Below are positions 18,727 through 64,000 of a DNA stretch of 64,000 nucleotides, one piece after another (positions within the stretch are counted from its first letter, which is position 1; each line of letters starts with the position of its first letter). The translations under genes were made by a program, and so were the position numbers. Under the pieces are notes generated by a model. That model searched no databases and was not told the DNA's origin. It was given only the letters and a program-made list of their open reading frames with translations. Source of the DNA: Daphnia pulex (lineage: Eukaryota; Arthropoda; Branchiopoda; Diplostraca; Daphniidae); assembly GCF_021134715.1 (NCBI RefSeq), contig NC_060018.1, positions 7,085,501 through 7,149,500 on the forward strand, given 5' to 3'.

Positions 18727-18808
18727 CGCAGTTGGTAGGGTTCGAACCTACGCCCTCAGAGAAGAATAGATGTTAAGTCTATCGCCTTAACCACTCGGAC
18801 ACAATTGC
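18727..18808 (-). tRNA. Ser-type tRNA with UAA anticodon, unit 8
   Basis: The body, long variable arm and discriminator G are those of the neighbouring Ser(UGA) genes. The anticodon loop reads CTTAACA, so the anticodon (18773-18775) is UAA, which reads the leucine codon UUA. Two substitutions in the loop explain it (positions 35 and 37). The acceptor has one mismatch and the D arm shares the unit-4 changes, so it may be a pseudogene. Confidence 0.75.
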
Positions 18809-39788: not shown

Positions 39789-39849
39789 CGAATTGTGTGG
39801 CTTTTGTAGGCCAGCGCAGAAATGAAGTTATGAATTAGTTTGCCCTAGT

Positions 39850-40290
39850 AAAATTCATAGATTGGTTTTAGTTTTAATAAGTATAATTCTTTTTTTAGCT
39901 TACCAATATCTTCGTCTAGTTGTGCTGACTCTTGAGAGAAGTTTGACATAATCTCTGTCCTTGCTGCATTTTCAAAAAACATTAAAGAATTCAAGGGCCA
40001 TCATAGTAAAATTCATAGATTAGTTATAGTTTTAATAAGTCTAATTCACATTTTAGCTTACCAATATCTTCGTCTAGTTGTGCTGACTCTTGAGAGAAGT
40101 TTGACATCATATCTGTCCTTGCTGCATTTTCAAAAAACATTAACGAATTAAAGGGCCATCATAGTAAAATTAATAGATTAGTTTTAGTTTTAATAAGTCT
40201 AATTCATATTTTAGCTTACCAATATCTTCGTCTAGTTGGGACTCTTTAGAGAAGTTTGACATCATATCTATCCTTGCTGCATTGTGATCA
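39850..40290 (-). repeat. Triplicated exon unit of about 150 bases
   Basis: Three tandem copies each hold, on the minus strand, a short coding block (MSNFSQESAQLDEDI) followed by a GTAAGC donor and intron sequence. The third copy (40200-40290) is slightly shorter. The copies differ at few positions, so the duplication is recent. It lies directly upstream of the HTH exons and in the same orientation. Confidence 0.85.
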
Positions 40291-45814: not shown

Positions 45815-48800
45815 TTAATTGCGATCAAGAAAAAATGTTTCGAATTTACGTCCGCTGACGAACGGAACATTGGTTGCTCTTCTGCGCGCATCGGTCCTCT
45901 TCATTCTTCTCAAATCATTATTTCGCATTAAAAAGATGCTTGCTTGTTGTCCATTACAATTGGGAATGAAGCCACTCAAGTACTGGTTAGTTGGTTGCTC
46001 CAGTGATCCAGTATAAAAATTGTGCTGGTAACCCTTGGTTTTGTAACGGTCGGCATATTTTCCTTCCTTCTCCATGCGCAGTATTTCGCCGACTGAATGT
46101 TCGTAATGTTTTGTGATGACCCTGGTGATCACTTCTGGTGACCCATTTTGTTTATTGTAGTCGCGAAAATCTTCAAAGTTTTCCTCATGTTCTCGGTAGA
46201 GATAGCGATTGCACTCGTGTGTCATTCTAGAAATATTGTTAACTTCGTCGACACCTCCAGAGTTGAGCGAGACATCGTGACTGTACACGTCTCCCGGTTG
46301 AAAACCTAGTTTTTCCTTGATCTCCTTCATGTTTTTGGAATTGCGCTCCTGTTTTCTCTCCGTTTCCGTTGTAATTATTCGAACGGTCCTTCCCAATTTG
46401 TCTTTTTCATAAATGGTCTTTCCATTTCTGGTTTTACTACATGCACCTGCCTGCAAGTGTTGGTAGCTCTGGTTGACACCCAATTTGCTCATGAATCGAG
46501 CTCGATCGTTTCCTTTGGCGTGATTCTTTAACTTTTCAATTGTGTGATCCACCGAAGGATCATTTTGAGCCTTTGAAAGGGCGTTGAAGAAGCAGCGGTT
46601 AGGTGGTTCCGAAGGATCGGGCACATATTCGTGTTTCGTTCCATCGGGCATGATGAGGCAGACGTGCTTGGTTCCGTCGTCATTCTGCGTGAAACTCATT
46701 TTGACTACGGGTTTATCCGAATAAGGATTTCCTTCCGGACAGTAATGGAACTTGTCCCCTTCGGTCCCTTGCGTGTACTGGCCAGTATTATCTTCTATTT
46801 CAAGCACGAAGCCGCAAGCGTCTACCGCGTTTTGCATTTCGATGGGCCCGACCGGTTTTCCATTGCCCATTTCATCGATCCATTGATCCTCAGTTGGTAT
46901 TTTGCCATCGTCAGCGCCGTTCTTAGAATCATTCTTGTCTTTGAGGTCGTCAGCTCCTTCCGGTAAGAGAGAGGGGCAGTATTTTTTGACGAATTTTGAG
47001 CTGATATTTCTTACCCTCTTCTCGACTTGGAGTTGGATCATGGGCTGGAGCCACGTCGATTGGATCGTATCGAGAGTTTCCTTCATTATCGATGATTGAA
47101 TTTCGCCCTCGGTTTCAGCAATAAATTTTTCAAATCGTTCTGCCTCTTTTGCTGATAACCCGCCACCAGCACTTTCGCCAACAGCTGATTGCTCCTGCTG
47201 ATTTTTCGTTTTCATCGCTCTCAGTTCGTCCTGTAGAGCGGCATTCAGATCGCCGACGTACGTCGATCCGTGTGTTGATAATTTCATGACCGACTCGCAA
47301 TTAGTCACTAAATTGTTGACCTTTTGAATCACTTCAGTAGTTTTTTGGCCATAATCAACGATAGTCTTGCCCATCTGAATGGCCTTTTCAATTGTACCGG
47401 CGTTAACAGCGGCAGTGATGCCTTGGGTGTTTCCGGTGGACGCGTGTGACCGGTACTCGCCGGCGTAGTTGCCCTGCAAACCGGACAAGCCAGCTGATGA
47501 GTCGTTGAAGATTCTCATCATGCGACTGGTGATTGACGAAGCGTTCGTGCGAAGCTCAGTAAACCAATCGCCGGCTTTCAATTGATTTGTGGCTCCATCC
47601 AGCACTTCCTTGATCTTTTGGCTCGCTTCGTCTGCGCTCTTGCCGCTTTTGACAATGGCAATCATCAGGGATTTCATGAGATCCTTGAGCCGAGTGAAAG
47701 CCTCTCGCAAAAAGGAGTTGCTGAACAAGAAAGATTTGATGCGCTCAAGCACCTGTTCCCTGATGAATATGTTGAGCCACGTGAGGAAGTGGCTAACAGC
47801 CTGGCCGATGATGGACGACAATATCATGTTGGCGCACTGGATCAAGATCTGCTTGCCGGCCTCAAACCATCCTTTTAGTGTTCCATTGAATCGACACATC
47901 AGTTTGCCCGCTTGCTTGAAACTGCCGCCGCACGCCTTGACAAGCCGGGCGGCTCCCAGACCCATAGTGACGGCAGTGAGCGCCAAACTTTTGGCCTTGT
48001 CTACAAGGTAGGATTTCCAAGTGAAGGATCCTGGTGATTGTAGGGTCTGGAAGGCGAACATTAAATCGTTGATGCCCTCGCCGACGAGTCCCGCACTGAA
48101 GAATGGGAAAGCGATAGCGCCGACCAGTTGAGCGACTCCAATCAGGGCAACGACGCCGATCCGCCAATCCCATCGTGACACGTACTCGTCAACTTTGAGA
48201 ACGCGATCCAAATGCTGGTTGTTGAACTGTTGAACCTCGTCGAATGGACTCGCTTGATCGTCGCCGGCTGGCGGAAGAGCGTCTTGCAACGAACAGAACG
48301 AGGACTTGACGTTCGCCAATGTTTTCAACTGGCCGAGATGAATGCCAACGGCTTGCATAAGCGCTGCGGACAGATTATTCCTTCTCTCTGTCATAGCGGC
48401 AGCCTCTTGAACTTTGTTGATAATCTCAGCAAAATGGCTAGCAACAGCCAAACTACCAAAGGCCGGAACGATCGGTGGGATCAGCTGTTTAATGTTTTGT
48501 TCTAAAGTGCTTTTTGGCTTTTCTTCTTCTCTCGCCTTTTCTGTTTCTTCTTTGCTGTAAAAGAGCTTGGCAAGCTTGTCGAATCCGTTGAGGGAATTAA
48601 TCCTATTCTTGATCTCATCAAAATCTTTTTGAATATCTTCTCGAGATCGCTCTCTGTTTGCAGACGGAAATTTAATGGCCGGATCTTTGAGAACTTCTAC
48701 GTCGACCAGGAAATCGAGGAATTGTTTGGCCAATTTCTTTTTACGTTCATCGAAAAGTGGCCGAAGAACGTACTGATTTCCATTCCGTTCGACGATGGGC

Positions 48801-49354
48801 GAAGAGAACCAAGTGGCTACAACATCGGCGCAAGACGAGAGGGCTACACCTTTCACCAGTTGAGCGTCAGGATCTCGATCCATCGAGGGAATCGGTTTCA
48901 GGATGCGGTGACGAAAGCATTTGTCCGTCACTTGCAATAATTTCTCGCCGTCCAGCCACTTTTCCAGCTTCTTCAATTGGCCACTATCTTCGATACCGAG
49001 TGTGGAGGAAACGAGCGAAAAATCTTGGCCGTCGTGAAATTTCAACCAACCGGGTAAAATACGCCGGTAAGCTTTTGATACGATGGTGTCGGGTATTTCG
49101 CCGATGTGCTGATCGCCTTTGATCATTTTCCCACCACCAGCTAGTTGGCCCTCATCGATGTAAACGGAAATTAAACTGCTCCAAAGCCTTGTTTCCACTT
49201 TGTAGATGGCGTCCTCGATATCCGACAGTTTGCAATTTTTATTTTTCACAAGATCTAAGAGAGGCTCGCGGCAGTGGGTGACGAACGGAGGCCAATCGAA
49301 CGAATTTTCAGCCGCTTTCCTGTAGCGGCGTGGCTTAATGAAATAACACTTCCC
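45815..49354 (-). CDS. SecA-like gene, last exon
   Basis: One 3,540-base exon (acceptor CATATTTAG) ending in a stop at 45815-45817. Hydrophobic segments lie about one third in (WRIGVVALIGVAQLVGAIAF region, near 48130, and two more to about 47730). They could be amphipathic or membrane helices. The last 350 residues include CFFNALSKAQ, reminiscent of the catalytic-cysteine box of OTU-type proteases, and a late histidine, but the match is weak. Confidence 0.9.
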   Translation of the reverse strand, partial: GKCYFIKPRRYRKAAENSFDWPPFVTHCREPLLDLVKNKNCKLSDIEDAIYKVETRLWSSLISVYIDEGQLAGGGKMIKGDQHIGEIPDTIVSKAYRRILPGWLKFHDGQDFSLVSSTLGIEDSGQLKKLEKWLDGEKLLQVTDKCFRHRILKPIPSMDRDPDAQLVKGVALSSCADVVATWFSSPIVERNGNQYVLRPLFDERKKKLAKQFLDFLVDVEVLKDPAIKFPSANRERSREDIQKDFDEIKNRINSLNGFDKLAKLFYSKEETEKAREEEKPKSTLEQNIKQLIPPIVPAFGSLAVASHFAEIINKVQEAAAMTERRNNLSAALMQAVGIHLGQLKTLANVKSSFCSLQDALPPAGDDQASPFDEVQQFNNQHLDRVLKVDEYVSRWDWRIGVVALIGVAQLVGAIAFPFFSAGLVGEGINDLMFAFQTLQSPGSFTWKSYLVDKAKSLALTAVTMGLGAARLVKACGGSFKQAGKLMCRFNGTLKGWFEAGKQILIQCANMILSSIIGQAVSHFLTWLNIFIREQVLERIKSFLFSNSFLREAFTRLKDLMKSLMIAIVKSGKSADEASQKIKEVLDGATNQLKAGDWFTELRTNASSITSRMMRIFNDSSAGLSGLQGNYAGEYRSHASTGNTQGITAAVNAGTIEKAIQMGKTIVDYGQKTTEVIQKVNNLVTNCESVMKLSTHGSTYVGDLNAALQDELRAMKTKNQQEQSAVGESAGGGLSAKEAERFEKFIAETEGEIQSSIMKETLDTIQSTWLQPMIQLQVEKRVRNISSKFVKKYCPSLLPEGADDLKDKNDSKNGADDGKIPTEDQWIDEMGNGKPVGPIEMQNAVDACGFVLEIEDNTGQYTQGTEGDKFHYCPEGNPYSDKPVVKMSFTQNDDGTKHVCLIMPDGTKHEYVPDPSEPPNRCFFNALSKAQNDPSVDHTIEKLKNHAKGNDRARFMSKLGVNQSYQHLQAGACSKTRNGKTIYEKDKLGRTVRIITTETERKQERNSKNMKEIKEKLGFQPGDVYSHDVSLNSGGVDEVNNISRMTHECNRYLYREHEENFEDFRDYNKQNGSPEVITRVITKHYEHSVGEILRMEKEGKYADRYKTKGYQHNFYTGSLEQPTNQYLSGFIPNCNGQQASIFLMRNNDLRRMKRTDARRRATNVPFVSGRKFETFFLDRN

Positions 49355-52300
49355 CTAAATATGACAACAGTTTCATTATTCTGGTAATTATTAAATGTTA
49401 CAAGTACTTACGAGCAACTCGATGACTTGATCGATGTGTTGGTCGTTTTCGGTGGGTAGGATGGAAGCCAGGGCAGATTTCAACGACACGCCGACCAGGT
49501 TGTCGATTTTGGACGCGTGAATTCGCCACAAACGGATTTGATTCGTCACTTGTTCTTCGAACCGCTTGTGACAGAGGGACGATCCGTTTTCCATTTGTCT
49601 GTTCAAACATTGATCGACTCGTTGGTTGAGACTGGTGAGCACTTCGATTCGATCGTCGATCAGTTTCCGGACCCGTTTCAAGTAGCCTTTTGCCTCCCTT
49701 TTCTTTTCGTACCCGGCGTTGTCGGCCAGAGCGAGGCGGGCGCGATCGAGCAGGGCGTTTTCGCACCACTTCGGTTCTATAGTCGCCACTTTATTGTAAC
49801 ATTTTGCCGCACGGCTCGGGCGCGACGATTCCTCGTAGCAACGGGCGAGCATAGTCCATTCGCTCGGACTGGACATGATAGACTCGACGTCCGATGATTG
49901 GATGGACATTGTCAGACGATCGAAACTATCGCTCAGTCTGTCGGCGAGTACCGGATCGCGATGGGCTTTCTCGATGGAGACGGCATTTTCGTCGAGCCAA
50001 AGCGCCCAGCGATTGTTGAAACAATTTCTCATAATCGTTTTGAAATTTTGTTGTAAATGCTCCAAGTTAGAAGCTGTGCTAAATGACTGAAATGATTCGA
50101 GAGATCTTTGGTTCAAGGGGCGGACGCATTTCTCGTAGTATTCGTGGAAAAGTTTCTCTTCCAGTTGGATCTTTGGCAGAGCTTCTCGTCGGATGTTGTC
50201 CAATCGGAGCCGTTCGTCTTCGTCGCGCTTTGATTTCAACTGAAGCATCCGGCCGTAAGGATCGCCACTTAGGTGGGATTTTCGATTTTCCTCATCCGTA
50301 TTTTCGATGACAAATTGGTAACTTCCAGGTTGGCCAGAGCGGGCCGTTCGTCCTTCGGCTTGAGCTTCGACGCGGGAGTTGGGCGGTAGAAACCCGATAA
50401 TCACGTGAAGACCGCCGTTGTTGAGGAGCTCTTTACTGGGTTTTAAATCTGTTCCACGGCCGGCCAAGTTTGTGGCAATGATCACCTGACCTGGAAGAAC
50501 TTCTTGGTGTTGTTTCTCCTTGAAGGCCTCGTCGAATGAGCTGACGTATTTGACGACTTGAATTGAAGCGTCTGCTTTAAGGCGGTCGTAAATCGAGTTG
50601 GCTAATTCAATGTTCTCGCAAACGACAAGAACGGCCCGCTGCTGGTTCGAAGCAACGCTGACGACTTTCTTTTGCATTCCATTGAGCCAATTTTGTCGAT
50701 CGTGAGCAATGATCGGCTCGTGTTGAAGGCAAAAGCGCGGCCTGAATCGCGGCAAGCGGAAAAAATCGACGCCAAACACTTGGCCCAGAAGGTCACACTC
50801 GGCCGCGGAACCAAGTGTGCCCGTCAGTCCGTACATGCGGCCCTTAAATTCGCTAAAGTAGCCAATGTTGGACATGAAAATGGCCTTCAACGAGATGGGC
50901 GTCCATTTCAGGCCGTGTTTCAACTGCAAAAATTGTTGCAAACCGTCCGACCACTCCGTTTGCACTTGCTCCACTCCCGTCTCTTTGTCCATGATGACGA
51001 TCCGTCTGCCTTGTCCGTCGCCGCAATCGTCCACCTTGTAGGCGTCGTTGGGTTTGAGTAGGTAACAAGCCCGGAACGCGCTCTTGATCCACGTCGACAG
51101 GTGCCGTTCGGCAAATTGCTTCAAACAATTGGGAACGCAAGTTGGAATCATCGGCTCGATCAACTGGTGAACTTCATCGACGATGTCACTCGATTCGGCC
51201 AAACGAACGACGTCGGGGGCGTTGACCATCGTCCAGATTTCGACAAACAACCGCATGAGATCGTACATTTCGGGAATGTTGTGCGACATGTACAGGACGT
51301 TTTCGCCTTTAAAAATAAAACAAGATAATTATTTCATCGATTATCACGAATCAATACACTAATACCTTTATCGAGGGTCATCGAGTCCACCTCGTCGACG
51401 ATGATGGCTCCCGGGTTGCGGTTGCGGGTCACGTCCTTGTCCTCGAAGAAGCGCGTGAGCAGAATGTCACGCATGAAACTGCCCAGGTCGCCGTAGATGA
51501 CGTCGTTGTTGTACCGGTTACGTCTGATATCCTCGTCGTTCGAACATTGCTGGTCACAATTGTTGCTCACGCTCACTCCAAACGCCTTGAAGAGCCATCC
51601 GATTTCGGCGATGTTAGCTTCGGCCAGCACGGAAGAACTCGTAATGATGTTAACGTGTCGATCCTCGTCCCAGTAGCGCAAGGCATGATAAATGGCCACC
51701 AGAGCAGAGATGAGCGTTTTTCCTTCGCCAGTTGAAATTTGTCCCATACGTCGAATCATATGTCCGGCTTGGCGGTTATCATCGGAAGAGACGAACGCGG
51801 CGACTGCAATAAGTTGAACGTCCCTCGGCACGTAACCCTTTTCATCGTGAACAACTCGACAAGCAACAGCCAGAAAATCGTCCACCTGCAATGATTTGCT
51901 GCTCGACTTCTTTAATTCATTACTCCATTTTCTGACGTCGAAATTAGTTTCGAATTCTCTAATCCGGATGCGTCTGATGCGTTCAACCATTTCGCTGCAA
52001 TTTCCGATCACTTTGCTCGACTCAGGATCTCGACTCATGATGGAAAAAATGTCCTCGACACTCAAATCGACTTTACTCGATTTTCTCATGTCTTTTTCGA
52101 TGATACCCGCATCGGACAGCGAATTCCAAACTGAATCTTCCACCGCCATTAACTTTTTCATCAAAGTTTTTTCGATCAAGGCAATCCAACGATCTTTAAT
52201 CCAGGGGTACCGAAACAAATTCTGCAGAATGTTTTTTAAATGAGCAGTGTCGCCCGATTTTTCTTTTAGTTCCGGGTGGCGGTGAACGACCAAACGAAGA

Positions 52301-55300
52301 AAGTGGTCGCTTCTTTGCTGCCCGAATTGGACGTCGAGTATAGACACCAAGTGTTGGAAAGTCCAAGATTTCCAAGCTGTCAATTTTCGGACCCACTGGA
52401 ATTATTGGCAATCGATCCGACAACGTCTGGATCGGAGTAAGGGAATTGGAGAAGAAGGGAGGAGCTAGACCGAAACGTAGATACATTCTCGTTTTGCTGG
52501 TGTAGAGCGCACGTGTGCCGACGCTCTACACTTTACGTTTTCAGAGTCGTTTTCCGAATTTCTTGTTTTTTTCTCTTGTGTTTTCCGTGCGGACGTATAG
52601 CAGGCAACTATCGTCCCGTCACCTAAACCCGAATTGTGTTCCCGTTTCCCCCGAGCCGAAATACATTCGACTTAAGTTAAATTACGACTCTGAAAGTTTC
52701 ATTCCGGTGTGTGAGAAGCAAACATTTGGTGCATCGACCGGGAATTGACGTTCCTCGGCCCATCGGCCCTCACACACACGTGTTCCGTCAGGAAATTCCC
52801 AGAGATTCGATTGAGCTCAACCACTCTCTGCGACCCGCTTCCTGCATACCGACGTTCGGCTGATTGGCGCTTCCTGTATCCCGCCCGGTACATTCGTCTA
52901 CAGGTCCGTGCAGCACCATCACCCCGTCATACCGAAAATCACCATCACGTTTTCGAGAAAGACCCGCGTGGCAGATTCGTTGGTTTCGCCGTTTGATCAC
53001 ACGCGTGAAACCCTCCGTCGACCCTCGTGTCTCATCGTTCATAATCTTGTCTCATCGTATCCCAACACATCCGCCCGTATCATCGCCATCTTACCACCCC
53101 GTCATCCTTAATCGTCAATTTGAGCCAGAGGAGAGCTGATCTCCCCCCTAGCCTTAAACTGCCTCGTGGTAAGAAGAAGGACGAAGAACAGAAGGCAGTG
53201 TTGAGAGAGAAGAGAAGAGTTGCCCGACGATCGCGTTATCACAACCCTGCCGCTCTCCCCGACACACGCGCGCCATCTTTGGCGCCCGCTCGCAGGAGCG
53301 CGATCACCCGCAGACCAGTCGTCGATCGTCGCATCATTGTTCAACCCGTAAGCGATCGACAGGCCATCATCGACAAGGCGATCAAGGAAGCCGAAGAAAT
53401 CGCCAAGACCATTCGAGCCGGCCGAAATCCAGACCCGACCGTACCGATCATTCACAACCGTGAAGCGCTCATCAAAGAGGCCGAAGAAATTATGCAGCAG
53501 ATCCTCGCCAAAAGGAAGTCAACCGATCAACAAGTTTCTGCCGCCCAGCACGAAGGACGTCAAGAATAAATTCCTTGTCCGCCATATTGGTTGCGTCCTT
53601 TGTTAGCCACTCCCCGCCCTTTTGATCGCGCTTCGTTTTAAAATATATTCCTTTGGCCATGTCTATTGTTTGTTGAGTCCGCCTTATTGGTTGCGTCTCT
53701 CGCTTTGTTTGTTGAGTCCGCCATTTTTATAGGTTGAGTCTTGCGTCTTTTAAGTCCGCCATTTTTTGGCTGCGTCTTGCTCCCGGCAAGTCCGCCACGT
53801 TGGTTGCGTCTTTGCCAAGTCCGCCAAATTGGTTGCGTCTCTCACACAATATATTTCGGCCACATCTTTGCTTTGTCGAGTCCGCCATATTTATTGGTTG
53901 CGTCTCTCGTTTTGGTACACTTATTCGGCCACATCTTTGCTTTGTCGAGTCCGCCATATTTATTGGTTGCGTCTCTCGTTTTGGTACACTTATTCGGCCA
54001 CATCTTTGCTTTGTCGAGTCCGCCATATTTATTGGTTGCGTCTCCTGTTTGGTACGTTTATTGGCTGCGTCTTGCTTCCGTCAAGTCCGCCATATTTAGG
54101 CTGCGTCTTTTATCAAGTCCGCCTTATTGTTTGTACCTATTGTTCCCTTTACAAAGTCCGCCATATTGGTTGCGTCTTTGTTTCAAGTCCGCCTTATTGG
54201 TTGCGTCTTTGTTTCAAGTCCGCCTTATTGGTTGCGTCTTTGGTTTCAAGTCCGCCTTATTGGTTGCGTCTTTCGTTATTATTCGTCACGCCATTTCGCC
54301 CGCCATTGCTCACCTTCATCACCATCTTACATCATCTCATCTACCCGATCGACCACAGCACGCGCGTTTCATCTTTGAGAGTGAATAGGCCTTGACATGG
54401 AGCAGTCGCAAGCAATAGCCCTTCCGCCTATCAATGAAGAAGATGACAATGAAGAAGTTGACGACGATGAAGAGGAGGCCCATTGTGATCTGGAAGCGAC
54501 CGAAGACCCGGATCATCTTAAGAACCTCCGTACTGGCGGAAAGTCGGTTCACACGAAGTCAGGGAAGAAATTAATGAAAGCAGTGAGAAACGGCTCCGAC
54601 CGCGACGAAATACGGGCTCTTCGAGCAGTTTACGTGCGAGACTTCGAAGAATTAGAAAGGCGACACGACCGATACGTCTCCGCCGACGCGGAAAACCTTT
54701 CGAGCAACGACTTAGAGGGCCAACGACAATGGATTCAAGCAGTAATTTACGATCAACAAAGGCTACTGGCAGACTGCGACAAGTACCTGAATTTTACAAA
54801 ACCTCAATCGTCAGCTTCCGTCGCAACCCGAGCATCGTCGAGACATAGCAGCGCATCTTCCGCGCAGGCGAAAATTCTTGAAGCCGAACGAAAAGAACAA
54901 GAAGCTCGACTCAAACTTCAACAAGCGGAGGATGAGGCGAAACGTCAAGCGGAAGAAGACGAATCTTTGAGAGAGCTGCAAGTTAGACAACGACAAATAG
55001 ATGCAGATCGTGAACAGCGGAAGTTAAAGGACGAAATGGAGCTGCAACAACTCACCAGCGCCATCATGCGGCAGCAGTTATCTGACATCACCGGTGCCGA
55101 CGACGCGGCCAACGAAACACGAGCGATGTCAACATCGAGCGCTCCGTCCGGATTTATGAGGAGACGCACTTTGCTGTCAAGCATCTTTAATCAACCGGCG
55201 CCACTCAGTCAACCACCACCGGCAGAAAACGTACAGACGACCAACACGGCTGGGCATGTTCCGGTAGCTCCAGCGACTACATTTCACCGTACGATGACCA

Positions 55301-58300
55301 CACCCGCCGGAAGACCCTCTACTTTGTCGACCCCGTTGATTGGATCGACCCAGAAGTTGCTACCACCGGCCCGATTATTCGCGACACCCGTCCCGCCGAT
55401 ATCGACAGCGCCGTCCACCCCAAAACCGGGGATCTTCTCGCAGATGCGAGATTTGGCCACGAGAGTTTTCACTCCCAGCAGTAGAACGATGACAAGATAT
55501 TCTTCCGTGCCGACTCTTCCAGTATCCAGCAACGTCAGCACCGTACCGACAACCAGCGTGACAAACCCGACGTTTATCCCGCCTTCATCGACGACTAATT
55601 TTGTCACGCCGCCGACGACTAGGTTTGTCACGCCGCCGACGACTAGTTATGTCACGCCGCCGACAACAACGAACCAACCGGTTTCTGCAGCAGCTACTCA
55701 ACCCAGTAGAAATGTCAGCTCAGCTCCTAGTCGACCTCCGATTCAACCACCCGCTTCATACCCGCCGAGCACGTCGTTTTCGGTGCCTTGGCCGTCATGG
55801 AGAAACGCAGGACGAGCTACTAGTGGAGTAAATGTCCCACCGCCGCAACCACCGACTTCAACAGTTGTGGCAAGTGGAACCAACCATACAAATCCGCCTG
55901 GACACGGGCCGTCATCCGGATACGTACCACCATCGACCGCCGTGTCACTCTCGATGCCATCCAGTGTTGGAGAGACGATTTTTCATACTGGACATGGATC
56001 ATCATCCGGATTTGTGCCCCTATCGACAGCAGTGACGTTCTCTATGCCATCCAGCGTTGGTGGAACGACTTATTTTTCTACTGGCATGAATTACGGAACG
56101 AACATTGCTGCGTCTGCTCCGGAGTCATCATACGGGCCGGCCTCAACGAACACCTGCCCGCCGATCACGTTGACCACGAATAGCCACCGGCCGTCGTCGA
56201 TTCCTTTCCCAAGCAATGTGTACGCACCGCCCTTTGTGCCCAACTCGTCTGTGCCACCAGAGCCGCCGCCGAATCCGTACGGCCACGATGGCGCGTCGGG
56301 AATTTACACCCCGGACGATTGGATTCACACGCTCGGGACACCGTTCGCTACTAAAACCAGATCCAGCGTTAAGCCCCCGCGAATGAAAGTACCGAACTTT
56401 GACGGGGACCCAAGCAACTGGCCGATGTTCATTCAAATGTTCAAGATATTCGTGCACGACGCTGTGAGCTCTGATGCTGAACGCATCGCTCATTTACACG
56501 ACGCCTTGACTCCCGAAATCAGGAAGAACATCGGAGGCGCTCTGCTGAATCCCGGGCTCTACCATCACGCGCTACACGAGCTGCACAAACGTTACGGCAA
56601 CCCACAGCTCGTTTCCCAGTCCTGCACATCTTCATTGCTCAAGCTGCAGCCGTTTAAAGATAACGACTTCAACGCCCTTCGGGCATTCTCGGCAAATCTA
56701 CATTCCGTCGTGGCCACACTCCGCCTTGGCGGATATGGAATGGAGCTTCATAGTCACGCCACGTTGGCACAACTGGTCGCCAAACTCCCGCCTGCACTCA
56801 AAAGCCGCTGGGGTGAAAAGAGCTGGGCCAAACAGCCCCAGCTTTCGACAGTTGAAGATTTGGACAAGTGGTTGGACGACGTCGCAATGGCCGAACATTC
56901 CATTAGAGCAGGAGCGATGGAATCATCCCGATCCAGTGGTGATCCGCCGAAGAAAAGTAACAGAGACGGCCGCCGTGGCCAAAGCCACAACGTATTCAAC
57001 ACAACAACCGAAAACCGACCCGCGCAGCAATCAACAAATCAATTACGCTGCCCTTGCTGCGACAGTACCGATCAACATCACCTTGAAGAATGTCAAGAAT
57101 TTAAATCACTCCCGGTGGAAGAACGAGCGATCATCGCCAAGGAAAAAGGCATATGTTTCCGCTGTCTTGGCCATGATCATATCGGACGAGATTGTAGCCA
57201 AACGCAACGCTGCACTCAACCGGATTGTGATGCCGTCCATCATCCCCTTCTTCACGGCGCCCCAAGGATGTTCACGAGAGAGAAGACACCACCGGCAGCA
57301 ACATTTTCGGGTTCGATCTCCACCGAGAGCAGAGCATACGCGGGAAAACGCACCATGCTGCCGATGGTGCCAATTATTCTATGTGCCAACGGGAAAGAGA
57401 TCAAGCTGTACGCGCTTTTGGATAACGGAAGCGAAATCTCCATCGTCAAGAAAGAAATATCCGATCGTTTGGGACTAAATGGCCGCATTGAACGCGCAGT
57501 CACCAATACAGTCGACGGGAGAGGCAAACCAGTCGACACGTTGATCGTGAATTTCGATATTATCTCACTGGATCGGCGCTACATTTTCAACATCGTCGAC
57601 GCTCAAGTGAAAGAAACGTTCCGGCTCAGCAAGCGACCCATCGACCTAGCAGCCCTCACCGAGAGGTGGCCTCACCTCGCACACGTCCCAATTCATTCCG
57701 CCCTGGAGGAAGAAATCGCAATATTGATTGGCCACGACCATCCGGCGGCCATCGATATTTTTGAAACCCGCAAAGATCCCTTCCACCAGCGAGCACCACG
57801 CGCCTATTTAACGGCCTTCGGGTGGTGTATCGGCGGACCAACCGGGACCGGAGGTGAAACCGATGCCAGCTCATTCCACGTGAGCTCGCTCGAAGATGGG
57901 TGTGATCTCCAGCTGGAACAATTTATCGACGCCGACACCTTAAATACAAAGCCCGATATCGTTCAGTCTATCGGCGAAGAAGAGAAGAGAGCGTGGAATA
58001 TTTTAACGACCACGAAACAACGCGATGGCGTCCGGCATCAATCTGGGCCTTCGTGGAAGACGAACGAACCAATCCATCCGAAAAATATCGTCGCCGACCA
58101 GAGATGCCCATGCCTTTTCAACCCCGAACCAAAGTGCGTTGAAAACGAAGATCCGACCGATATCTACAAGTGCGTGATTGACACGTACGGCGAGTACAAA
58201 CGCGCTCGCAACCTGAAGCGGAAGGAATTCCGGCCAGGAATTGGCAATCGGTGTCTGGATGAAATTGATTCCGCTCGCATCTGTATCTTCACGCACACCC

Positions 58301-61300
58301 AGCGCAACGTTTACCGCCAGGAAGCGGAAGATTTACGGGCCGGCAGCCCCATCGAAAAATTGTCCGATTTCAAGCTCTCTCCATACTTAAATCCCAACGG
58401 GATTTTACGCGCTGGCAGAAGAATCAACAAGGTGCTGCTTCCCCTCAACGCTCGCCATCCGATTATCCTACCCAGGAAAGAACGCGCCACCGAACTTAAA
58501 CGCCGGAGCGTTATATTTACCTGCCTTGCCGCCGTGTTAGGCGGAAGGAACCGTCTACTTAAATGGAGTCGAACGTCACCGTCCGTCTCACAAACTCTCC
58601 CCCCTCGAGCCTGTCCGCATCCGTGAATATGCGCCTGTAACTACAAAGCGCAGGGCCGGCGATGTTGGAAAGTCCAAGATTTCCAAGCTGTCAATTTTCG
58701 GACCCACTGGAATTATTGGCAATCGATCCGACAACGTCTGGATCGGAGTAAGGGAATTGGAGAAGAAGGGAGGAGCTAGACCGAAACGTAGATACATTCT
58801 CGTTTTGCTGGTGTAGAGCGCACGTGTGCCGACGCTCTACACTTTACGTTTTCAGAGTCGTTTTCCGAATTTCTTGTTTTTTTCTCTTGTGTTTTCCGTG
58901 CGGACGTATAGCAGGCAACTATCGTCCCGTCACCTAAACCCGAATTGTGTTCCCGTTTCCCCCGAGCCGAAATACATTCGACTTAAGTTAAATTACGACT
59001 CTGAAAGTTTCATTCCGGTGTGTGAGAAGCAAACACCAAGCGACGGGCAAGGTCGGGCGTCCAATCAACGGCCAGCTGGGCGTAGCGCATCACTGACGGC
59101 CAATCGTTTAAAGAAGCATTGGAGAAACTGGCCAATATGACGTCTTCGTGAAATTGAAGCTTGGGTGTCGTCAACCTGTTGGTCACTTCTTGGACGAGAT
59201 TCATCAGTCGAATCGGATCACCCGCCATTTCCTGCCGAATCTTCTGGTAGAAGGTATGCAAGAAAGATCCTGGCGCTCCGGACGATGGCCACCATTGTAC
59301 AAGTTGTTGGACGATGTCGGAACTCTTAATATCAACTTCATCTTCACGGCACTTTTCGTTGAGTTGATCGAGTAAATTCTGAATGGCGAAAATGGCGAGC
59401 ATATCGATCCACTGGTGAGGTCGGCAACCGGTCGTGGCGGATCGACACAAGTCGAGCGAAAATTCTCCAACCTCTTCGAACAATTTGATTATCTGGTGGA
59501 CGGAGAGTCCTTGATGCGCCTCGTACGATTTCAGCGAAGGGATGACGACGTCACGAAACCAAAGGAGCCACTCGCGCACTTCGTCGCCTTGTTCTTTCTT
59601 TGTGCGGATCAATCGATTAAATGATCGGCAAAGTTGGATGATGTGCTGCTTGTCCGCTAAAGCTTCCCGGCTACATGGAGCGCCAATCTGCTGGTTGGGC
59701 ATCAAAAAGTGTTCGATATCCCGGTCGGTAATGGACGGCTCGAAACAGCGCACAAACTCCGCTCGGAATCGTTCGATGGCCAATTTTTGCAGCGCACCCA
59801 AGAAACACGACGGCTGTTGGTTGTCAACCAACAGTGCGCTCTCTACTGAGGGACCATCGTCGATCAGATCGATGTACAATTTTTCTTCGTCGTTGAAAAT
59901 GTCGTAATCGGTGATGGAAAAAAATAACTGGGCGTCATTGAGGCTGCAATTTTTATCCCGAAGCGCCTCCATCAAAAGACAAATGCGTGCCTGCTCCCAG
60001 CAACTTTCCAGAGCGACACATCGTTCAACGAAAGCCTTTCGACTTCCGCTCAACATTTCCGACAGGAAGCACATTTTTCCGGGCGACGGATCCAGTTCTC
60101 CAAAGAAATAAATTCGCTTGGTTAATTAAAAATAATTTTTAAAATTTTGCTTTGAAATTACCTGGAATCAAGAAACCATTTAGAACATGGTTAGCAGTTT
60201 TTTCATCCCAATAGAAGGAATCTGATTGGCCTAGTTGAATCAATCCCATGAGTACAAGTTGCCGAGTTTCCAGTTGATCTATCATAAATTCGGTTTCGCT
60301 CTCCACTCGACTGCTGGCAGTTTTGTTATTTGGTCGCACAAATCGGACGATATTAGTCCAGCGGTCAACGAAGTTTTTAAATGTGAAGCAAACAAGGTTC
60401 AAGTCCACCTTCTTGTTTGGACATTTTTTAGAATCGGCCAACAACTTGGTCACGTAGCAGGCGCTGCAATAATCGACCAACACTTGCTGGATTCCCATCA
60501 TTTCTTTCCAGTGGTTTATATTTTGTCCATCTGCTGCAGTAGGAGATGTATCATGAATCCTTCTCGTGTGATTAATCAAATCATCAAGTAAAAGGACCCA
60601 ACGTCTAGCCATAAACCAAGTTGCTCGTTTTCGGTCGCTGCTCAGCTGTCCGCCGACGAAATTCGCCAGTGTCGTAATCAACCCTATTGGCTTCTATTCC
60701 ACGTATTTTGAAAAGAAAATGAGAGAATACTTGAAAATGGAAATAAGCGTACTACTATGTACCTCACTGATGTTAAGGTTTAAAATGGCGTCAAAAAAGG
60801 AGCTCCAACTGATTTCGGACAGATTATTTGGGATTGAAGTACACGCCACGAAAATGTCGATTGCTGCTCGGAGTAGAGATGTTTTTTCGTTTTTCAATCC
60901 ATTGCAACTGAGAAATTGGCTAGATGCAATAGTCGCTTTGATAACCGTGAGCGTGTCGATACCGAACCTAGAATTGGCCAAATAACCAACAAACATCTCC
61001 AACCAGGAAAGCGCTTGATTGAACGCGTGTAACATGTTTCGACGACGGACGGCCATCCGATCGTAGATTTCTCTGCTGCAGTCGTCCTCACTTGACGACT
61101 TTGATTCGGCGGTTTTGACTAATTCTTTGACAGCAAAGTGTACCATAGATTGCGCTTCGCTATCTAGGACTTTCCATTGAACCAATTTCTTCTTCCATTC
61201 TCCAAGCTTAGCTGACGATATCAGCTGACTGCTGGTATTTTTGGCGTCGTCAGTAATCAATTCCATCATCAATTGAGCTACCTCGATCACGACGAGTAGC

Positions 61301-64000
61301 GATCGAACTGATTCCGCGTCATCGAAAAATGGAACTGTCGCTACCGAAATTATTTCAAACAAAACATCCGTCAAGGCGACGATGTCTTCGCCGACATATT
61401 TTCCTGAATTTTACAAAAGAAATTAATATAATAATGCTAACGCTCCGGCGAACTTACAATATAAATTACCTTTCTTTGTCATGCACAATAATTCATTTGA
61501 ATAGAGTTGGTTTATTATTGGAGTAATTGTCGATGCTATCGCTTTGACTGCATAACAATAAAAACACAAGTGAAACATACAATAATTTTACTTCTTTCAA
61601 ATAAATTGCACTCACCCGCTTGCTTGAGATCGTTTGCAATGAATTCGAAGCGATCTTGGGGTTTAGACTGTTTCGGGAGTTGAAGCCATTTTTGGACGGC
61701 TTCGAGCGGTGGCAGACCAGCTGTGAAAAGCAAATATCGTTCAAGAGCCAACTCCAAAGAGTTCAAACTCCGATCGTCGTCCTCGGGATTTCTCTCGGCG
61801 ATCACGTTACGAAGATGTTCTGTCTGTTCATTGCATTTACTCCAACGCAAGAAGAAATAGTTACTCCATTTTTCAAGGAACGTCGACCGGAAGCAGTGCC
61901 AATGGTAACTGTTGAAATGGTCGGTGATGGGGCGATCGGCCGACTTGTTGAACAAAATACTAGCCACTTCTACGATTTGACTCGGTTCGAATGATGCAGA
62001 AAGATGACTCAGGCGAAAGTGCAATTCCAGAATCACGTTCTTCTTTTCAAATTTCTTTGAATCAGCCAGCAAGGAAGAAATGATTTCCACTTCTTGGCGA
62101 GCATCATTTTTTCTCGATACAAACAACTCTGCAGTTGACGCTTCAACTTTTTCCGATAGTGGTTTGATCCAATCCAGAAATTGTCTTGGTTTCTTATCGG
62201 CACCATCCAGTTTTTCCTTCAAAGCGCGTCCCAACTGCAGTCGTTCCTTAAAAGATAAACTGGTGAATGAAGATTGGATAGACGTTTTCAGTTGACGGAT
62301 CGCCTCTCCAACATCCTCGTTTACTTTCCCATCTTTGGTCCATTTTTCACTCAAAAGCAACTGCATTTGCGACCAAATTGGCGCTACGAATCTTTCGCTG
62401 AATGCCCGTTCGACAAGCGCCATCAAGTGGCGATCGCAATTTTTGCGCGCCCACCGACCGATCGCGTCCATCTCGTCGACTTCCGGTGACATGTGATCGA
62501 TGATGAAAACTAGTTGCCATCTGTCTTTGACGTCAATCTTAGATATGTCCTGGGGTATTCCGAGCCGATCCCGAGCAAAGGGCAGCAACAACTTGTCGAC
62601 CATGGCGATGCTATTCTCATGATCCAAAGCTTTCGAAAGCTCGCTCACGAATTGATCGACATGCTTCAACCACTCATTTTCGGCGTCCGATGAAGGTGCA
62701 GCAGACTTGGTCCATTTCGACATCGGTGAGCATTGCAGCCAAACTTCGGTGAAGAGACTGGCCCTTGGTTGACGGAGTTCTTTATTGCCAATAGCTCCAA
62801 AAATTGTTTTAGTTAAGTTGGTAAGGATCCACTTGTCCAAAAAGAGGCCCAGTAAAATTTGACTTTGCTGGGTCCAGTCCGATATGCAACCAAGTAAGAC
62901 GATGACTTGTTGAACTGGGATGGGGCGCTGGTGGAATTCGTGCAAAACCCGAATGGCGTTCTTCTCCGCTGCTTCTTGGCCAGTTGACGCCAGAAATGCG
63001 AGTAGAATTTCGATCAAATTACAACTCGCAGGCGACTGGTCGGCAAGCGAAATTATCAACGGAAGATGCGATGCAATAAACTCCAAAGAATCGGCCAATT
63101 TTAGCGGATGGCTCGAAACTTTGCTGACAATTTTCTCAATGGACTCCCATTCCTTTTCGTGTTTATCGAACTTTAATTTGAGGACCAGCGATTGAACTGC
63201 CTGAGGGATTTTCAGCGTCAGCAAATTACTGTCGTCTCCTTTGCTCATCATAATGGACATGACCAATGCATCGATTTCAGCCAAGCAACGCAATGCCGCT
63301 GTCGATTCTCCGTATACCGAACGGCCGGATCGTACGTCGCTCGCAAAATTAGTTGGGATCCTGGAAGCAGGAAGGCCAAGAAGGTTTTCGTCCTCAAAAT
63401 TCAGTTTCATCTGCCTCGTTATTCTTTGGCCGACAACTGACTGATGAGCGATGCGCTGCTCAAATGTTTCTTGAATTTTGGCTTGAACGCGCTGGCGGAT
63501 TTCGTCCATCCGCTCGAGTCGTTGGCGATCGGCGGCCAGCGCTCCTTCGTGACGTGAAACGGCATTCCGCTCTCCTACTACCTCTCTCGACATTCGGTTG
63601 ATAGATTCCCTTTCATTTGCTTTCTCCCGCTCGTCGTGACGTCTCGCCTCCGCTTGTCTTTTTCTTTCACGTTCGTATTCGTCGCTTCCTGTTTGATGAT
63701 GACTGTGAAATTGTGAAGCGGTTTGATGAGTAGTGGCATTAGAAGAGCGTTGTCTCTGTTGCTGACATGCGGCTTTTTGGCCTTCAGTGCCACGTTTGCC
63801 TTCCGTAGCTTGATTCCTTCTTGAAGAACTACTACGAATCTTGTGTCCTATATTGCACCCATCCCCATCCCACCTGACGATTTCCAGATCGGTTCTGGAA
63901 CCCATGTGACTTCGCCAATATCCCGTATTCCAAAAGTATGGCCGATTATCGTTTGGCTCGAAATACAAAAACGCGTCTAGTCCGTCTTTGCCGCCCGATC
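45815..64000 (-). CDS. Giant intron-bearing SecA-like ATPase gene, 5' end beyond window, split by an LTR element
   Basis: Seven minus-strand exons (>64000-61616, 61547-61470, 61403-60763, 60693-60162, 60097-59036 continued at 52351-51366, 51306-49412, 49354-45815) have GT/AG boundaries and phases 1,1,0,1,1,0 that all agree. They give at least about 3,700 codons. Order: N-terminal Arg/Glu-rich coiled coil; about 1,700 residues of helical sequence; SecA-type motor with GEGKT (51715-51729), DEVDS (51382-51396), GLTGT, ATNLAGRGTD (50447-50476) and GRTARSGQPGS (50321-50353); a TPR-like pair; a long C-terminal part with hydrophobic helices. Bacterial SecA is about 900 residues and drives preproteins through SecYEG. 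The motor motifs are intact, so ATPase function is likely. The preprotein-binding parts are not recognisable, so the substrate is unknown. Introns of 57-69 bases show a nuclear gene. Exon 5 is interrupted at 52351/59036 by a BEL-type element. Confidence 0.9.
49412..51306 (-). CDS. SecA-like gene, exon 6 (nucleotide-binding fold 2 and TPR-like part)
   Basis: Contains GLTGT (about 50830), ATNLAGRGTDLKP and AEGRTARSGQPGS, equivalent to SecA motifs III to VI. A helical connector follows, then a TPR-like segment (EWTMLARCYEESSRPSRAAK, then CYNKVATIEP). Donor GTAAGT in phase 0. Confidence 0.94.
51366..52351 (-). CDS. SecA-like gene, exon 5, downstream part (nucleotide-binding fold 1)
   Basis: Carries the Walker A motif MGQISTGEGKT and the Walker B motif IIVDEVDSM, both in the form peculiar to SecA rather than to DEAD-box RNA helicases. 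It ends at a GTATTA donor within the sequence that follows DEVDS. Confidence 0.93.
52347..52351. repeat. Target-site duplication, left copy (ccaag)
   Basis: ccaag here and again at 59036-59040 directly flanks the LTR element. Five bases is usual for BEL/Pao integration. Confidence 0.9.
52352..52724 (+). repeat. 5' LTR, 373 bases
   Basis: Begins tgttggaaag and ends agaagcaaaca; matches 58663-59035 base for base as far as I can read. It contains a short hairpin gtagagcgcacgtg/gccgacgctctac around the likely transcription start/R region. Confidence 0.95.
52727..52744 (+). promoter_or_regulatory. Primer binding site, tRNA-Gly type
   Basis: tggtgcatcgaccgggaa, two bases after the LTR, is complementary to the 3' end of a eukaryotic tRNA-Gly(GCC) (CCA end, acceptor and T arm) with one mismatch. 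Confidence 0.8.
53120..53569 (+). CDS. LTR element leader ORF, unknown small protein
   Basis: 149 codons upstream of the Gag frame, rich in Arg/Lys/Glu, with an internal near-repeat (AIIDKAIKEAEEIAK and ALIKEAEEIMQQILAK) suggesting two similar helices. It has no known family. BEL elements usually lack such an ORF. Treated as a fossil part; function unknown. Confidence 0.5.
   Translation: MSQRRADLPPSLKLPRGKKKDEEQKAVLREKRRVARRSRYHNPAALPDTRAPSLAPARRSAITRRPVVDRRIIVQPVSDRQAIIDKAIKEAEEIAKTIRAGRNPDPTVPIIHNREALIKEAEEIMQQILAKRKSTDQQVSAAQHEGRQE
53585..54290 (+). repeat. Tandem-repeat leader of the LTR element
   Basis: A motif like aagtccgccatattggttgc is repeated at least a dozen times at irregular spacing. 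Within it a 70-base block (about 53852-54050) is present three times with almost no change. It lies between the leader ORF and the Gag frame. Confidence 0.9.
54397..58626 (+). CDS. Gag-Pol-type frame of the BEL/Pao element
   Basis: One frame of 1,409 codons. In order: acidic N-terminus and Glu/Gln/Arg coiled coil (about 54800-55080); long Pro/Thr/Ser-rich linker (about 55150-56350); DUF1759-like Gag core (about 56370-56900, PRMKVPNFDGDPSNW); zinc knuckles (about 57040-57260, CFRCLGHDHIGRDC); A17-type aspartic protease with LLDNGSE (about 57400-57450); and a short integrase-side piece near the end (LSPYLNPNGILRAG). Overall the Pol complement is incomplete and the element is broken. Likely age is very young, judging from the LTRs. 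Confidence 0.88.
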   Translation: MEQSQAIALPPINEEDDNEEVDDDEEEAHCDLEATEDPDHLKNLRTGGKSVHTKSGKKLMKAVRNGSDRDEIRALRAVYVRDFEELERRHDRYVSADAENLSSNDLEGQRQWIQAVIYDQQRLLADCDKYLNFTKPQSSASVATRASSRHSSASSAQAKILEAERKEQEARLKLQQAEDEAKRQAEEDESLRELQVRQRQIDADREQRKLKDEMELQQLTSAIMRQQLSDITGADDAANETRAMSTSSAPSGFMRRRTLLSSIFNQPAPLSQPPPAENVQTTNTAGHVPVAPATTFHRTMTTPAGRPSTLSTPLIGSTQKLLPPARLFATPVPPISTAPSTPKPGIFSQMRDLATRVFTPSSRTMTRYSSVPTLPVSSNVSTVPTTSVTNPTFIPPSSTTNFVTPPTTRFVTPPTTSYVTPPTTTNQPVSAAATQPSRNVSSAPSRPPIQPPASYPPSTSFSVPWPSWRNAGRATSGVNVPPPQPPTSTVVASGTNHTNPPGHGPSSGYVPPSTAVSLSMPSSVGETIFHTGHGSSSGFVPLSTAVTFSMPSSVGGTTYFSTGMNYGTNIAASAPESSYGPASTNTCPPITLTTNSHRPSSIPFPSNVYAPPFVPNSSVPPEPPPNPYGHDGASGIYTPDDWIHTLGTPFATKTRSSVKPPRMKVPNFDGDPSNWPMFIQMFKIFVHDAVSSDAERIAHLHDALTPEIRKNIGGALLNPGLYHHALHELHKRYGNPQLVSQSCTSSLLKLQPFKDNDFNALRAFSANLHSVVATLRLGGYGMELHSHATLAQLVAKLPPALKSRWGEKSWAKQPQLSTVEDLDKWLDDVAMAEHSIRAGAMESSRSSGDPPKKSNRDGRRGQSHNVFNTTTENRPAQQSTNQLRCPCCDSTDQHHLEECQEFKSLPVEERAIIAKEKGICFRCLGHDHIGRDCSQTQRCTQPDCDAVHHPLLHGAPRMFTREKTPPAATFSGSISTESRAYAGKRTMLPMVPIILCANGKEIKLYALLDNGSEISIVKKEISDRLGLNGRIERAVTNTVDGRGKPVDTLIVNFDIISLDRRYIFNIVDAQVKETFRLSKRPIDLAALTERWPHLAHVPIHSALEEEIAILIGHDHPAAIDIFETRKDPFHQRAPRAYLTAFGWCIGGPTGTGGETDASSFHVSSLEDGCDLQLEQFIDADTLNTKPDIVQSIGEEEKRAWNILTTTKQRDGVRHQSGPSWKTNEPIHPKNIVADQRCPCLFNPEPKCVENEDPTDIYKCVIDTYGEYKRARNLKRKEFRPGIGNRCLDEIDSARICIFTHTQRNVYRQEAEDLRAGSPIEKLSDFKLSPYLNPNGILRAGRRINKVLLPLNARHPIILPRKERATELKRRSVIFTCLAAVLGGRNRLLKWSRTSPSVSQTLPPRACPHP
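58663..59035 (+). repeat. 3' LTR, 373 bases
   Basis: Same sequence as 52352-52724; followed by the second ccaag target copy. Confidence 0.95.
59036..60097 (-). CDS. SecA-like gene, exon 5, upstream part
   Basis: The acceptor TTTCTTTGGAG at 60098 is the only one nearby that keeps phase 1 from exon 4. The frame runs to the edge of the inserted LTR element, where the host sequence resumes in the same frame at 52351. Read straight on, it would leave the host frame a few codons inside the LTR and stop. Confidence 0.88.
60162..60693 (-). CDS. SecA-like gene, exon 4
   Basis: Acceptor GTGGAATAG, donor GTAATT; 532 bases. It contains a Cys/His/Lys-rich patch but no clear metal site. The splice phases agree with exons 3 and 5. 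Confidence 0.85.
60763..61403 (-). CDS. SecA-like gene, exon 3
   Basis: Acceptor AAATTCAG, donor GTACAT; 641 bases of helical sequence with no named domain; ends in phase 0 after NLNISE. Confidence 0.87.
61470..61547 (-). CDS. SecA-like gene, small exon 2
   Basis: 78 bases between a TTATGCAG acceptor and a GTAATT donor, adding 26 codons and keeping phase 1 on both sides. It is too short to be found by open-frame length. Confidence 0.85.
61616..64000 (-). CDS. SecA-like gene, exon 1 in window (5' partial)
   Basis: The frame is open to the window edge, so the true start is outside. The first 100 residues include a Tyr/Trp/Gly-bearing segment (RPYFWNTGYW) and a Gln/Ser-rich linker. A strongly charged coiled coil follows (about 63690-63430), then 600 residues of helical, repeat-like sequence without a named domain. 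It ends at a GTGAGT donor in phase 1. Confidence 0.88.

What the first reader, a model, noticed from the sequence alone, without database searches (positions are those of the whole stretch)
45815..64000. Giant SecA-like motor protein encoded by an intron-bearing animal gene
SecA motors belong to bacteria and plastids. Here the full set of SecA-form ATPase motifs sits inside a protein of at least about 3,700 residues, split by six short spliceosomal introns. The canonical SecA preprotein cross-linking and C-terminal zinc parts are not seen, while thousands of residues of helical, TPR-like and hydrophobic sequence are added. This suggests an old transfer from a bacterium (perhaps an intracellular one) followed by intron gain and a new role, possibly protein translocation or remodelling in a eukaryotic compartment. 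I recall SecA-like annotations in some aquatic invertebrates but cannot verify that here.
Basis: partly seen in the sequence, partly recalled or inferred. Interest (0 to 1): 0.88.

Follow-up and report, generated by a model that had tools for sequence, protein, structure and literature searches.

The report
Broken giant SecA-like gene, bacterial kin
An animal gene carries a protein-pulling motor related to large motor proteins found mainly in bacteria that live inside cells; this copy is cut in two by a recently inserted jumping element.

Summary
The SecA-type motor is real, and the six short introns are GT-AG and keep the frame. But the gene is not continuous: a 6,684-bp LTR retroelement (52352-59035; identical LTRs, duplicated CCAAG) splits it upstream of the motor. 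Sequence and fold matches go to SecA/SecA2 before any generic helicase. On a 60-motor tree the window lies inside a SecA-like clade, beside Chlamydia-class and Rickettsia-endosymbiont proteins and apart from canonical SecA (AU p = 0.0002). Such motors occur in 31 of 343, 18 of 143 and 11 of 190 genomes of three largely intracellular groups, against 2 of 398 across Pseudomonadota; 9 of 24 loci from a separate scan come from other groups. All 27 bacterial frames with at least 800 residues after the motor, and the window, share an unnamed hydrophobic module. Of 22 of those C-termini scanned, 4 carry effector-type domains (WHH nuclease, ADP-ribosyltransferase, Ulp1 protease). Giant SecA-domain genes of arthropods and Wolbachia were reported in 2013, so this is a new member of a known kind. 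Direction of transfer and function are inferred, not shown.

The parts
45815..64000 (-). SecA-like giant gene, 5' end outside the window; stop codon at 45817-45815; interrupted by the element 52352-59035
   Evidence: open exon pieces of 1,565 + 2,139 codons without internal stop
61616..64000 (-). exon 1 of those visible; no known domain
   Evidence: no Pfam family at E <= 1; no tblastn match in plasmids
61548..61615 (-). intron, 68 bp GT-AG
61470..61547 (-). exon 2
   Evidence: frame kept
61404..61469 (-). intron, 66 bp GT-AG
60763..61403 (-). exon 3
60694..60762 (-). intron, 69 bp GT-AG
60162..60693 (-). exon 4
60098..60161 (-). intron, 64 bp GT-AG
59036..60097 (-). exon 5, part before the insertion
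52352..59035 (+). LTR retroelement, probably BEL/Pao type, inserted in exon 5; LTRs 52352-52724 and 58663-59035 identical; target duplication CCAAG at 52347-52351 and 59036-59040
   Evidence: DUF1759 4.7e-10; the BEL/Pao assignment is recalled
54385..58626 (+). the element's long open frame (DUF1759); ends 36 bases before the 3' LTR; no polymerase domain found in its three pieces
51366..52351 (-). exon 5, part after the insertion; contains the SecA_DEAD domain (about 52008-51366)
   Evidence: PF07517 1.5e-22
51307..51365 (-). intron, 59 bp GT-AG, inside the motor; bacterial homology runs on across it
49412..51306 (-). exon 6: reduced preprotein cross-linking domain (about 51124-50927), P-loop_SecA (about 50668-50441), Helicase_C, then a helical region with weak TPR matches
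49355..49411 (-). intron, 57 bp GT-AG
45815..49354 (-). last exon with stop codon
47951..48172 (-). hydrophobic module shared with long bacterial relatives (LVGEGINDL...FTWKSY...KA)
   Evidence: profile match 4.7e-20 (the window was one of the three seed rows); alignment A4
46154..46426 (-). C-terminal stretch weakly like DNA/RNA non-specific endonuclease; below the family cut-off
   Evidence: PF13930 E 0.00059, 20.5 bits against cut-off 27

Best explanation
This is an animal member of a family of SecA-like motor proteins, many of them giant, found mainly in bacteria that live inside eukaryotic cells. The ancestor most likely came into the animal from such a bacterium; the gene then came to carry introns. 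The long bacterial proteins look like effectors: a long N-terminal part, a SecA-type ATPase, a hydrophobic module starting 275-1,042 residues after the motor, and a variable C-terminal part. The mechanism I think most likely is that ATP hydrolysis drives the SecA clamp to pull an unfolded polypeptide, probably the protein's own C-terminal part, while the hydrophobic module sits in a host membrane and gives it a way through. In the animal the protein would be an inherited, repurposed version. In the sequenced allele a recent retroelement insertion separates the N-terminal half from the motor, so this copy probably no longer makes the full protein. Shown here: motor identity, intron structure, insertion, motor-module association, placement in the tree. 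Inferred: direction of transfer, active ATPase, membrane insertion, self-translocation, loss of function of this allele.
For: Motor: Pfam and NCBIfam SecA models; PDB sequence matches only to SecA/SecA2; the 36 PDB fold matches at E <= 0.001 are all SecA or SecA2. Tree: the 11 canonical rows one clade 100/100; window inside a 37-row SecA-like clade 100/100, next to G547 (Chlamydia class) and G007 (Rickettsia endosymbiont of Culicoides impunctatus) 98/95. A tree holding the 48 bacterial SecA-like motors together without the window is rejected, p-AU 0.00017. The G547 protein is 41% identical in a 354-column alignment. Distribution 31/343, 18/143, 11/190 against 2/398 including the centre genome. 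Module: in 27 of 27 bacterial frames with at least 800 residues after the motor; in 14 genomes its 21 matches all lie in frames that also hold the motor, one of them with only a partial motor match (against 48, 50-52). C-termini: of 22 scanned, 5 have a family above cut-off, 4 of them enzyme or toxin type. Introns and insertion.
Against: No other eukaryotic homologue could be put on the tree, so direction rests on one animal tip; PMC3639933 argued for eukaryote to Wolbachia. 9 of the 24 genome loci come from groups not known to me as intracellular. Many SecA-like motors, above all in the Legionella and Chlamydia searches, sit in frames of about 800-1,400 aa; ten complete frames with under 400 residues after the motor lack the module, and of eight with 400-799, some cut by the locus end, only two have it. 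17 of 22 C-termini show no family above cut-off. The module profiles were built partly from the proteins they were tested on, so the telling point is absence elsewhere. The window's own C-terminus has only a sub-threshold nuclease match, no match among the frames over 900 aa fetched, and a useless single-sequence model (pLDDT 37). The module has no convincing relative of known structure (best E 0.015); membrane insertion is inferred from hydropathy. The N-terminal part matches none of those frames at E <= 1 (one chance-level match, E 0.14).
Confidence: 0.6

Rival explanations
1. The motor family arose in eukaryotes (or moved among them early) and intracellular bacteria took it from their hosts, several times.
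For: PMC3639933 found homologues in ants, mosquitoes, Daphnia, a beetle, a fly, ciliates and a slime mould, with Wolbachia and two Amoebophilus genes nested among them. Giant length and introns fit a host gene.
Against: On the tree here 48 bacterial SecA-like motors from Pseudomonadota, Chlamydiota, Bacteroidota and Verrucomicrobiota surround the one animal sequence, and a tree with those 48 held together without the window is rejected. In the 2013 account the only bacteria inside the eukaryotic clade were Wolbachia and Amoebophilus.
Confidence: 0.2
2. It is a working host protein with a new role, for instance threading or disaggregating proteins in the cytosol, unrelated to membranes or effectors.
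For: Helical exon 6 model with weak TPR matches; the frame is intact on both sides of the insertion, which speaks for selection until recently.
Against: The hydrophobic module is kept and goes with the motor in the long bacterial relatives.
Confidence: 0.25
3. A dead relic: a transferred gene that was never fixed for a function and is now decaying under transposon insertion.
For: The retroelement splits the gene before the motor.
Against: No stop in the spliced 3,704 codons outside the element; LTRs are identical, so the insertion is recent; motor motifs are present.
Confidence: 0.15
4. A generic DEAD-box helicase with chance SecA likeness.
For: Helicase_C and DEAD models also match, more weakly.
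Against: PDB sequence matches are all SecA; fold matches are all SecA down to E 0.001, other ATPases and helicases only after that.
Confidence: 0.01

Closest known systems
Eukaryotic-like secA genes wBol1_1091 / wBol1_1092 of Wolbachia, the phage WO homologues wHa_3920 / wHa_3930, and their arthropod homologues (Harpegnathos, Daphnia pulex, mosquitoes)
   Same: [quoted passage not shown] PMC5062602, passages)
   Different: No sequence of theirs came up in the searches, so no direct alignment was made; the 2013 paper thought most annotated introns in such genes spurious, whereas six sound introns are seen here
SecA-like proteins of Rickettsiales, Legionellales and Chlamydia-class genomes (e.g. 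WPX99842.1 and WPX99843.1 of Ca. Megaera polyxenophila, WP_323733494.1 of Ca. Bandiella woodruffii, WP_135842960.1 of Legionella geestiana)
   Same: Motors of these four 27-30% identical to the window, 41% in the closest, unnamed one; long ones also have the hydrophobic module
   Different: No introns needed for an open frame; N- and C-terminal parts not recognisably shared; some end in toxin or effector domains
Giant actinobacterial secreted toxins with a SecA-like ATPase (PMC8195603, passage)
   Same: A SecA-like ATPase inside a giant toxin, there predicted to help the toxin's secretion; the idea of a motor that serves its own protein is thus partly in print
   Different: Other domains (GT4, MFS transporter, HTH); actinobacteria; whether those motors belong to the same clade was not tested
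Amoebophilus effectors with SecA-like domains, and polymorphic toxins in general (PMC3482391, passages)
   Same: Endosymbiont setting; variable C-terminal domains such as OTU, nucleases and Ulp1
   Different: SecA-like domains are listed there among the C-terminal domains; the passages seen do not describe a motor-plus-module body
Canonical SecA / SecA2 translocase ATPase
   Same: SecA motor and overall SecA fold
   Different: Separate clade; no C-terminal zinc motif found; GRTARSGQPG instead of the canonical GRxGRQGxxG form; giant flanks

Membership tests
SecA preprotein translocase (canonical) | SecA DEAD motor with Walker A, DEVD and AGRGTD motifs | tested here: met
   PF07517 1.5e-22, P-loop_SecA 7.4e-10; motifs; fold
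SecA preprotein translocase (canonical) | Scores above the curated cut-off of a SecA or SecA2 equivalog/subfamily model | tested here: not met
   best piece 90.8 bits against cut-off 862; pieces were scanned apart, which lowers the score
SecA preprotein translocase (canonical) | Preprotein cross-linking domain | tested here: inconclusive
   SecA_PP_bind 23.5 bits, equal to the cut-off
SecA preprotein translocase (canonical) | C-terminal zinc motif (pattern recalled) | tested here: not met
   not found in the window; found in 8 of 11 canonical frames L086-L096; the three without it are plasmid SecA or SecA2
SecA preprotein translocase (canonical) | Groups with SecA/SecA2 in a tree | tested here: not met
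SecA-like family of intracellular bacteria and arthropods | Motor inside the SecA-like clade | tested here: met
   100/100 for the 49-row side and for the 37-row clade that holds the window
SecA-like family of intracellular bacteria and arthropods | Hydrophobic module behind the motor (long members) | tested here: met
   4.7e-20, starting 684 residues after the motor, with the window a seed row of the profile; plain blastp, independent of the profile, gives Legionella 1e-11 and Megaera 3e-8 over the same stretch
SecA-like family of intracellular bacteria and arthropods | Full-length homology to wBol1_1092 | not testable with these tools
   no locus named as Wolbachia came up; the genomes are unnamed
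Polymorphic toxin / effector | Recognisable C-terminal toxin domain | tested here: inconclusive
   Endonuclea_NS_2 20.5 bits, cut-off 27

The most novel reading that the evidence does not exclude
The long members are a class of motor-carrying effectors: a SecA-type ATPase fused to a dedicated hydrophobic membrane module that drives the protein's own C-terminal payload across a host membrane, evolved in bacteria that live inside cells and later taken into animal genomes, where it acts for the host.
Probability: 0.25. Interest if true: 0.85.

Novelty: new member of a known kind. Interest (0 to 1): 0.55.

Why it matters
SecA is thought of as a motor of bacteria and plastids. A related motor in an animal gene that carries introns, surrounded on the tree by proteins of bacteria many of which live inside cells, bears on how symbionts and hosts exchange genes. 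If the motor and its hydrophobic partner work together, they would be a single-protein device for moving polypeptides into or through host membranes, which can be tested with purified protein. The tree also favours the direction opposite to the 2013 reading, in which bacteria took the gene from animals, and a wider tree would settle it.

Tried and rejected
Generic helicase: rejected. Bacterial contamination of the window: rejected because of six GT-AG introns and an LTR element of a kind that I recall as metazoan. Anti-phage defence system: PADLOC gave only weak Cas3 matches (best E 0.00066) for one of three pieces and none for the other two. Finding the Wolbachia homologue: viral contigs gave nothing with the single exon or the closest pair and two unnamed contigs with A1; phage records gave 19 weak matches, best E 2e-14, two of them annotated SecA and the rest without annotation. 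Structure of the C-terminus: pLDDT 37, not used. Known structure for the module: none convincing. N-terminal exon: no match in plasmids. C-terminal part: no match in plasmids or among the fetched frames over 900 aa. A second SecA-like copy elsewhere in the window: none at E <= 1e-3. Whole genome of the window: none held. The element's other plus-strand frames of 150 aa or more were not searched.

Full report
Observation. The minus strand of 45815-64000 holds a long animal gene. Its pieces give SecA_DEAD (1.5e-22), P-loop_SecA (7.4e-10), Helicase_C (2e-5) and a SecA_PP_bind match exactly at the curated cut-off. NCBIfam SecA models match too (best 5.9e-26) but far below their cut-offs, with the pieces scanned apart. 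All sequence matches in the PDB at E <= 0.1 are SecA or SecA2 (24 distinct sequences, 21).

Introns. All six introns are GT-AG, 57-69 bases, 25% GC in total against 43-51% in exon pieces of 500 bases or more (32% in the 78-base exon), and the frame is kept across each. The intron 51365-51307 lies inside the motor, and bacterial relatives align without a break across it, which is independent support. No transcript data were available.

The insertion. Two identical 373-base LTRs (52352-52724, 58663-59035) bound a 6,684-base element on the plus strand, flanked by the five-base duplication CCAAG. A piece of its long frame matches DUF1759 at 4.7e-10; that this family marks BEL/Pao elements, and that these are metazoan, is recalled. 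The long frame ends 36 bases before the 3' LTR, and no polymerase domain was found in its three pieces, so the element may be incomplete; its other plus-strand frames of 150 aa or more were not searched. With 30 bases of each flank joined, the gene's frame runs on. So the gene was intact until recently. In this allele 1,565 visible codons lie before the insertion and 2,139 after it, the motor among the latter. Whether the element is spliced out is unknown.

Relatives. A tblastn search of plasmids (20 of 103 records listed) found closer kin than ordinary SecA in Ca. Megaera polyxenophila (6e-47), Ca. Bandiella woodruffii (2e-43) and Legionella geestiana (2e-25), against 3e-16 for the best other listed row. 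An alignment of 172 motor positions then found 24 loci in prokaryote genomes and 2 in viral contigs. By record title 10 of the 24 are Rickettsiales, 4 Chlamydiota and 1 Legionellaceae; the other 9 are metagenome bins of Gammaproteobacteria (3), Alphaproteobacteria (2), Neisseriaceae, Bacteroidetes, Verrucomicrobia and Omnitrophota. The open frames around the 26 matches are 1,050-4,507 aa in the stretches held, many cut by an end. In eight host genomes one frame of ordinary SecA size (885-1,033 aa) scores 53-63 bits, while most SecA-like ones score 86-250 bits and three partial or weak ones 27-40. At E <= 1e-20 a SecA-like motor was found in 31 of 343 genomes of the order of a Rickettsia endosymbiont, 18 of 143 of the order of a Legionellaceae genome, 11 of 190 drawn from the class of a Parachlamydiales genome, and 2 of 398 drawn evenly from the phylum of the first, that genome included. 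Not all are giants: many frames are about 800-1,400 aa. Group names are read from the record titles of the centre genomes.

Tree. 89 motors covered most of the model; partial motors had been left out, with a Mycoplasmopsis SecA whose frame breaks under table 11. 29 near-copies were dropped, leaving 60 rows and 526 columns. The 11 rows that I labelled canonical (SecA, SecA2, and one unannotated Ensifer frame) form one clade at 100/100. The other side splits into 12 rows, mostly shorter proteins, at 88/82, and 37 rows including the window at 100/100. Holding the 48 bacterial SecA-like motors together without the window costs 109 log units, p-AU 0.00017. Identity with the G547 protein is 41% in a 354-column alignment. 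The weakness is that no other eukaryotic sequence could be added.

Architecture. A profile started from the window, Legionella geestiana and Megaera, and widened once with its own hits, picks up a hydrophobic stretch that begins 275-1,042 residues after the motor. It is present in 27 of 27 bacterial frames that have at least 800 residues there (several are near-copies), in 2 of 8 with 400-799 (some cut by the locus end), and in none of 10 complete frames with fewer than 400. No canonical SecA frame has it. In 14 whole genomes a profile of 22 such stretches gives 21 matches, all in frames that also hold a SecA-like motor by place and frame length; one of these (G003, 1,807 aa) has only a partial motor match (against 48, 50-52). 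As the profile was built partly from these proteins, the telling point is that nothing else matches. The stretch matches no Pfam family and no solved structure convincingly (best E 0.015, a V-type ATPase subunit). In the window it includes the strongest hydrophobic segment. Of the 27 frames, 22 that are not near-copies were scanned behind or around the module; 5 carry a family above cut-off: WHH nuclease, colicin-type DNase and LysM (L007), WHH nuclease and colicin-type DNase (L028), an ADP-ribosyltransferase of the pertussis S1 family (L016, 22.0 bits against 21.3; its better match, Scabin-like, is below cut-off), LysM (L002), and DnaJ with Ulp1 protease (L082, 21.6 against 20.7 for Ulp1); 17 carry none. 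The window's C-terminus has only a sub-threshold endonuclease match.

Motifs. The window has the GRT[AS]R form of the last motor motif, as do 55 of 92 SecA-like frames, partial ones included, and 0 of 11 canonical frames; the canonical form is in 9 of 11 canonical and 6 of 92 SecA-like frames and not in the window. The zinc pattern, which is recalled, is in 8 of 11 canonical frames, 0 of 92 SecA-like frames and not in the window.

Structure. The model of exon 6 on 22 sequences has pLDDT 78 and pTM 0.72, with a 51-residue helix after the second motor domain; that this corresponds to SecA's scaffold helix is my reading. The 36 PDB fold matches at E <= 0.001 are all SecA or SecA2; other ATPases and helicases follow at 0.0013 and above. 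TM-scores by query length are modest (0.24-0.43) and rmsd large (4.8-23), probably because domains lie differently and only part of the protein was modelled. The C-terminal model was useless.

What is known. PMC3639933 (passages, and the section on transfer read in full) reported two long secA-domain genes in Wolbachia wBol1-b, the longer with full-length ant matches and a near full-length Daphnia pulex match, and inferred transfer from eukaryotes to Wolbachia. PMC5062602 (passages) lists SecA among the eukaryotic-like domains of phage WO. PMC3482391 (passages) lists SecA-like domains among Amoebophilus effectors. PMC8195603 (passages) mentions SecA-like ATPase domains in giant actinobacterial toxins, predicted to help their secretion. 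So the animal gene is a new member of a known kind, and the thought of a motor serving its own toxin is partly in print. I saw no description of the motor-module pairing or of this bacterial spread in nine literature searches, which cover open-licence papers only, and most hits were seen only as listings. The tree here favours bacteria to animal and so questions the 2013 direction without settling it.

Verdict. Motor, intron structure and bacterial kinship are sound; the gene is split in this allele; mechanism and direction of transfer are inferences. The host animal is not identified; a branchiopod crustacean is a guess from the Daphnia report.

Noticed in passing
window 2058-18808: Tandem array with a unit of about 2.47 kb, most units carrying tRNA-Ile, -Ser, -Arg and -Lys genes; 41 tRNA calls, a few of odd type.
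   Followed up: no
window 52352-59035: LTR element, probably BEL/Pao, with identical LTRs; no polymerase domain found in its long frame; 69-base internal repeats at 53652-54061.
   Followed up: partly
window 39846-40283: Tandem repeat with a 158-base unit, 2.8 copies.
   Followed up: no
L016:13031-16867: Legionellaceae SecA-like giant whose C-terminal part holds an ADP-ribosyltransferase-like domain.
   Followed up: no
L049, L059, L079: SecA-like genes in genome-handle loci that look split (L049, L059) or have a long insertion inside the motor (L079).
   Followed up: no
L097:1954-3939: Unannotated SecA-like frame of 662 aa on an Ensifer plasmid, deepest branch of the canonical side of the tree.
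   Followed up: no
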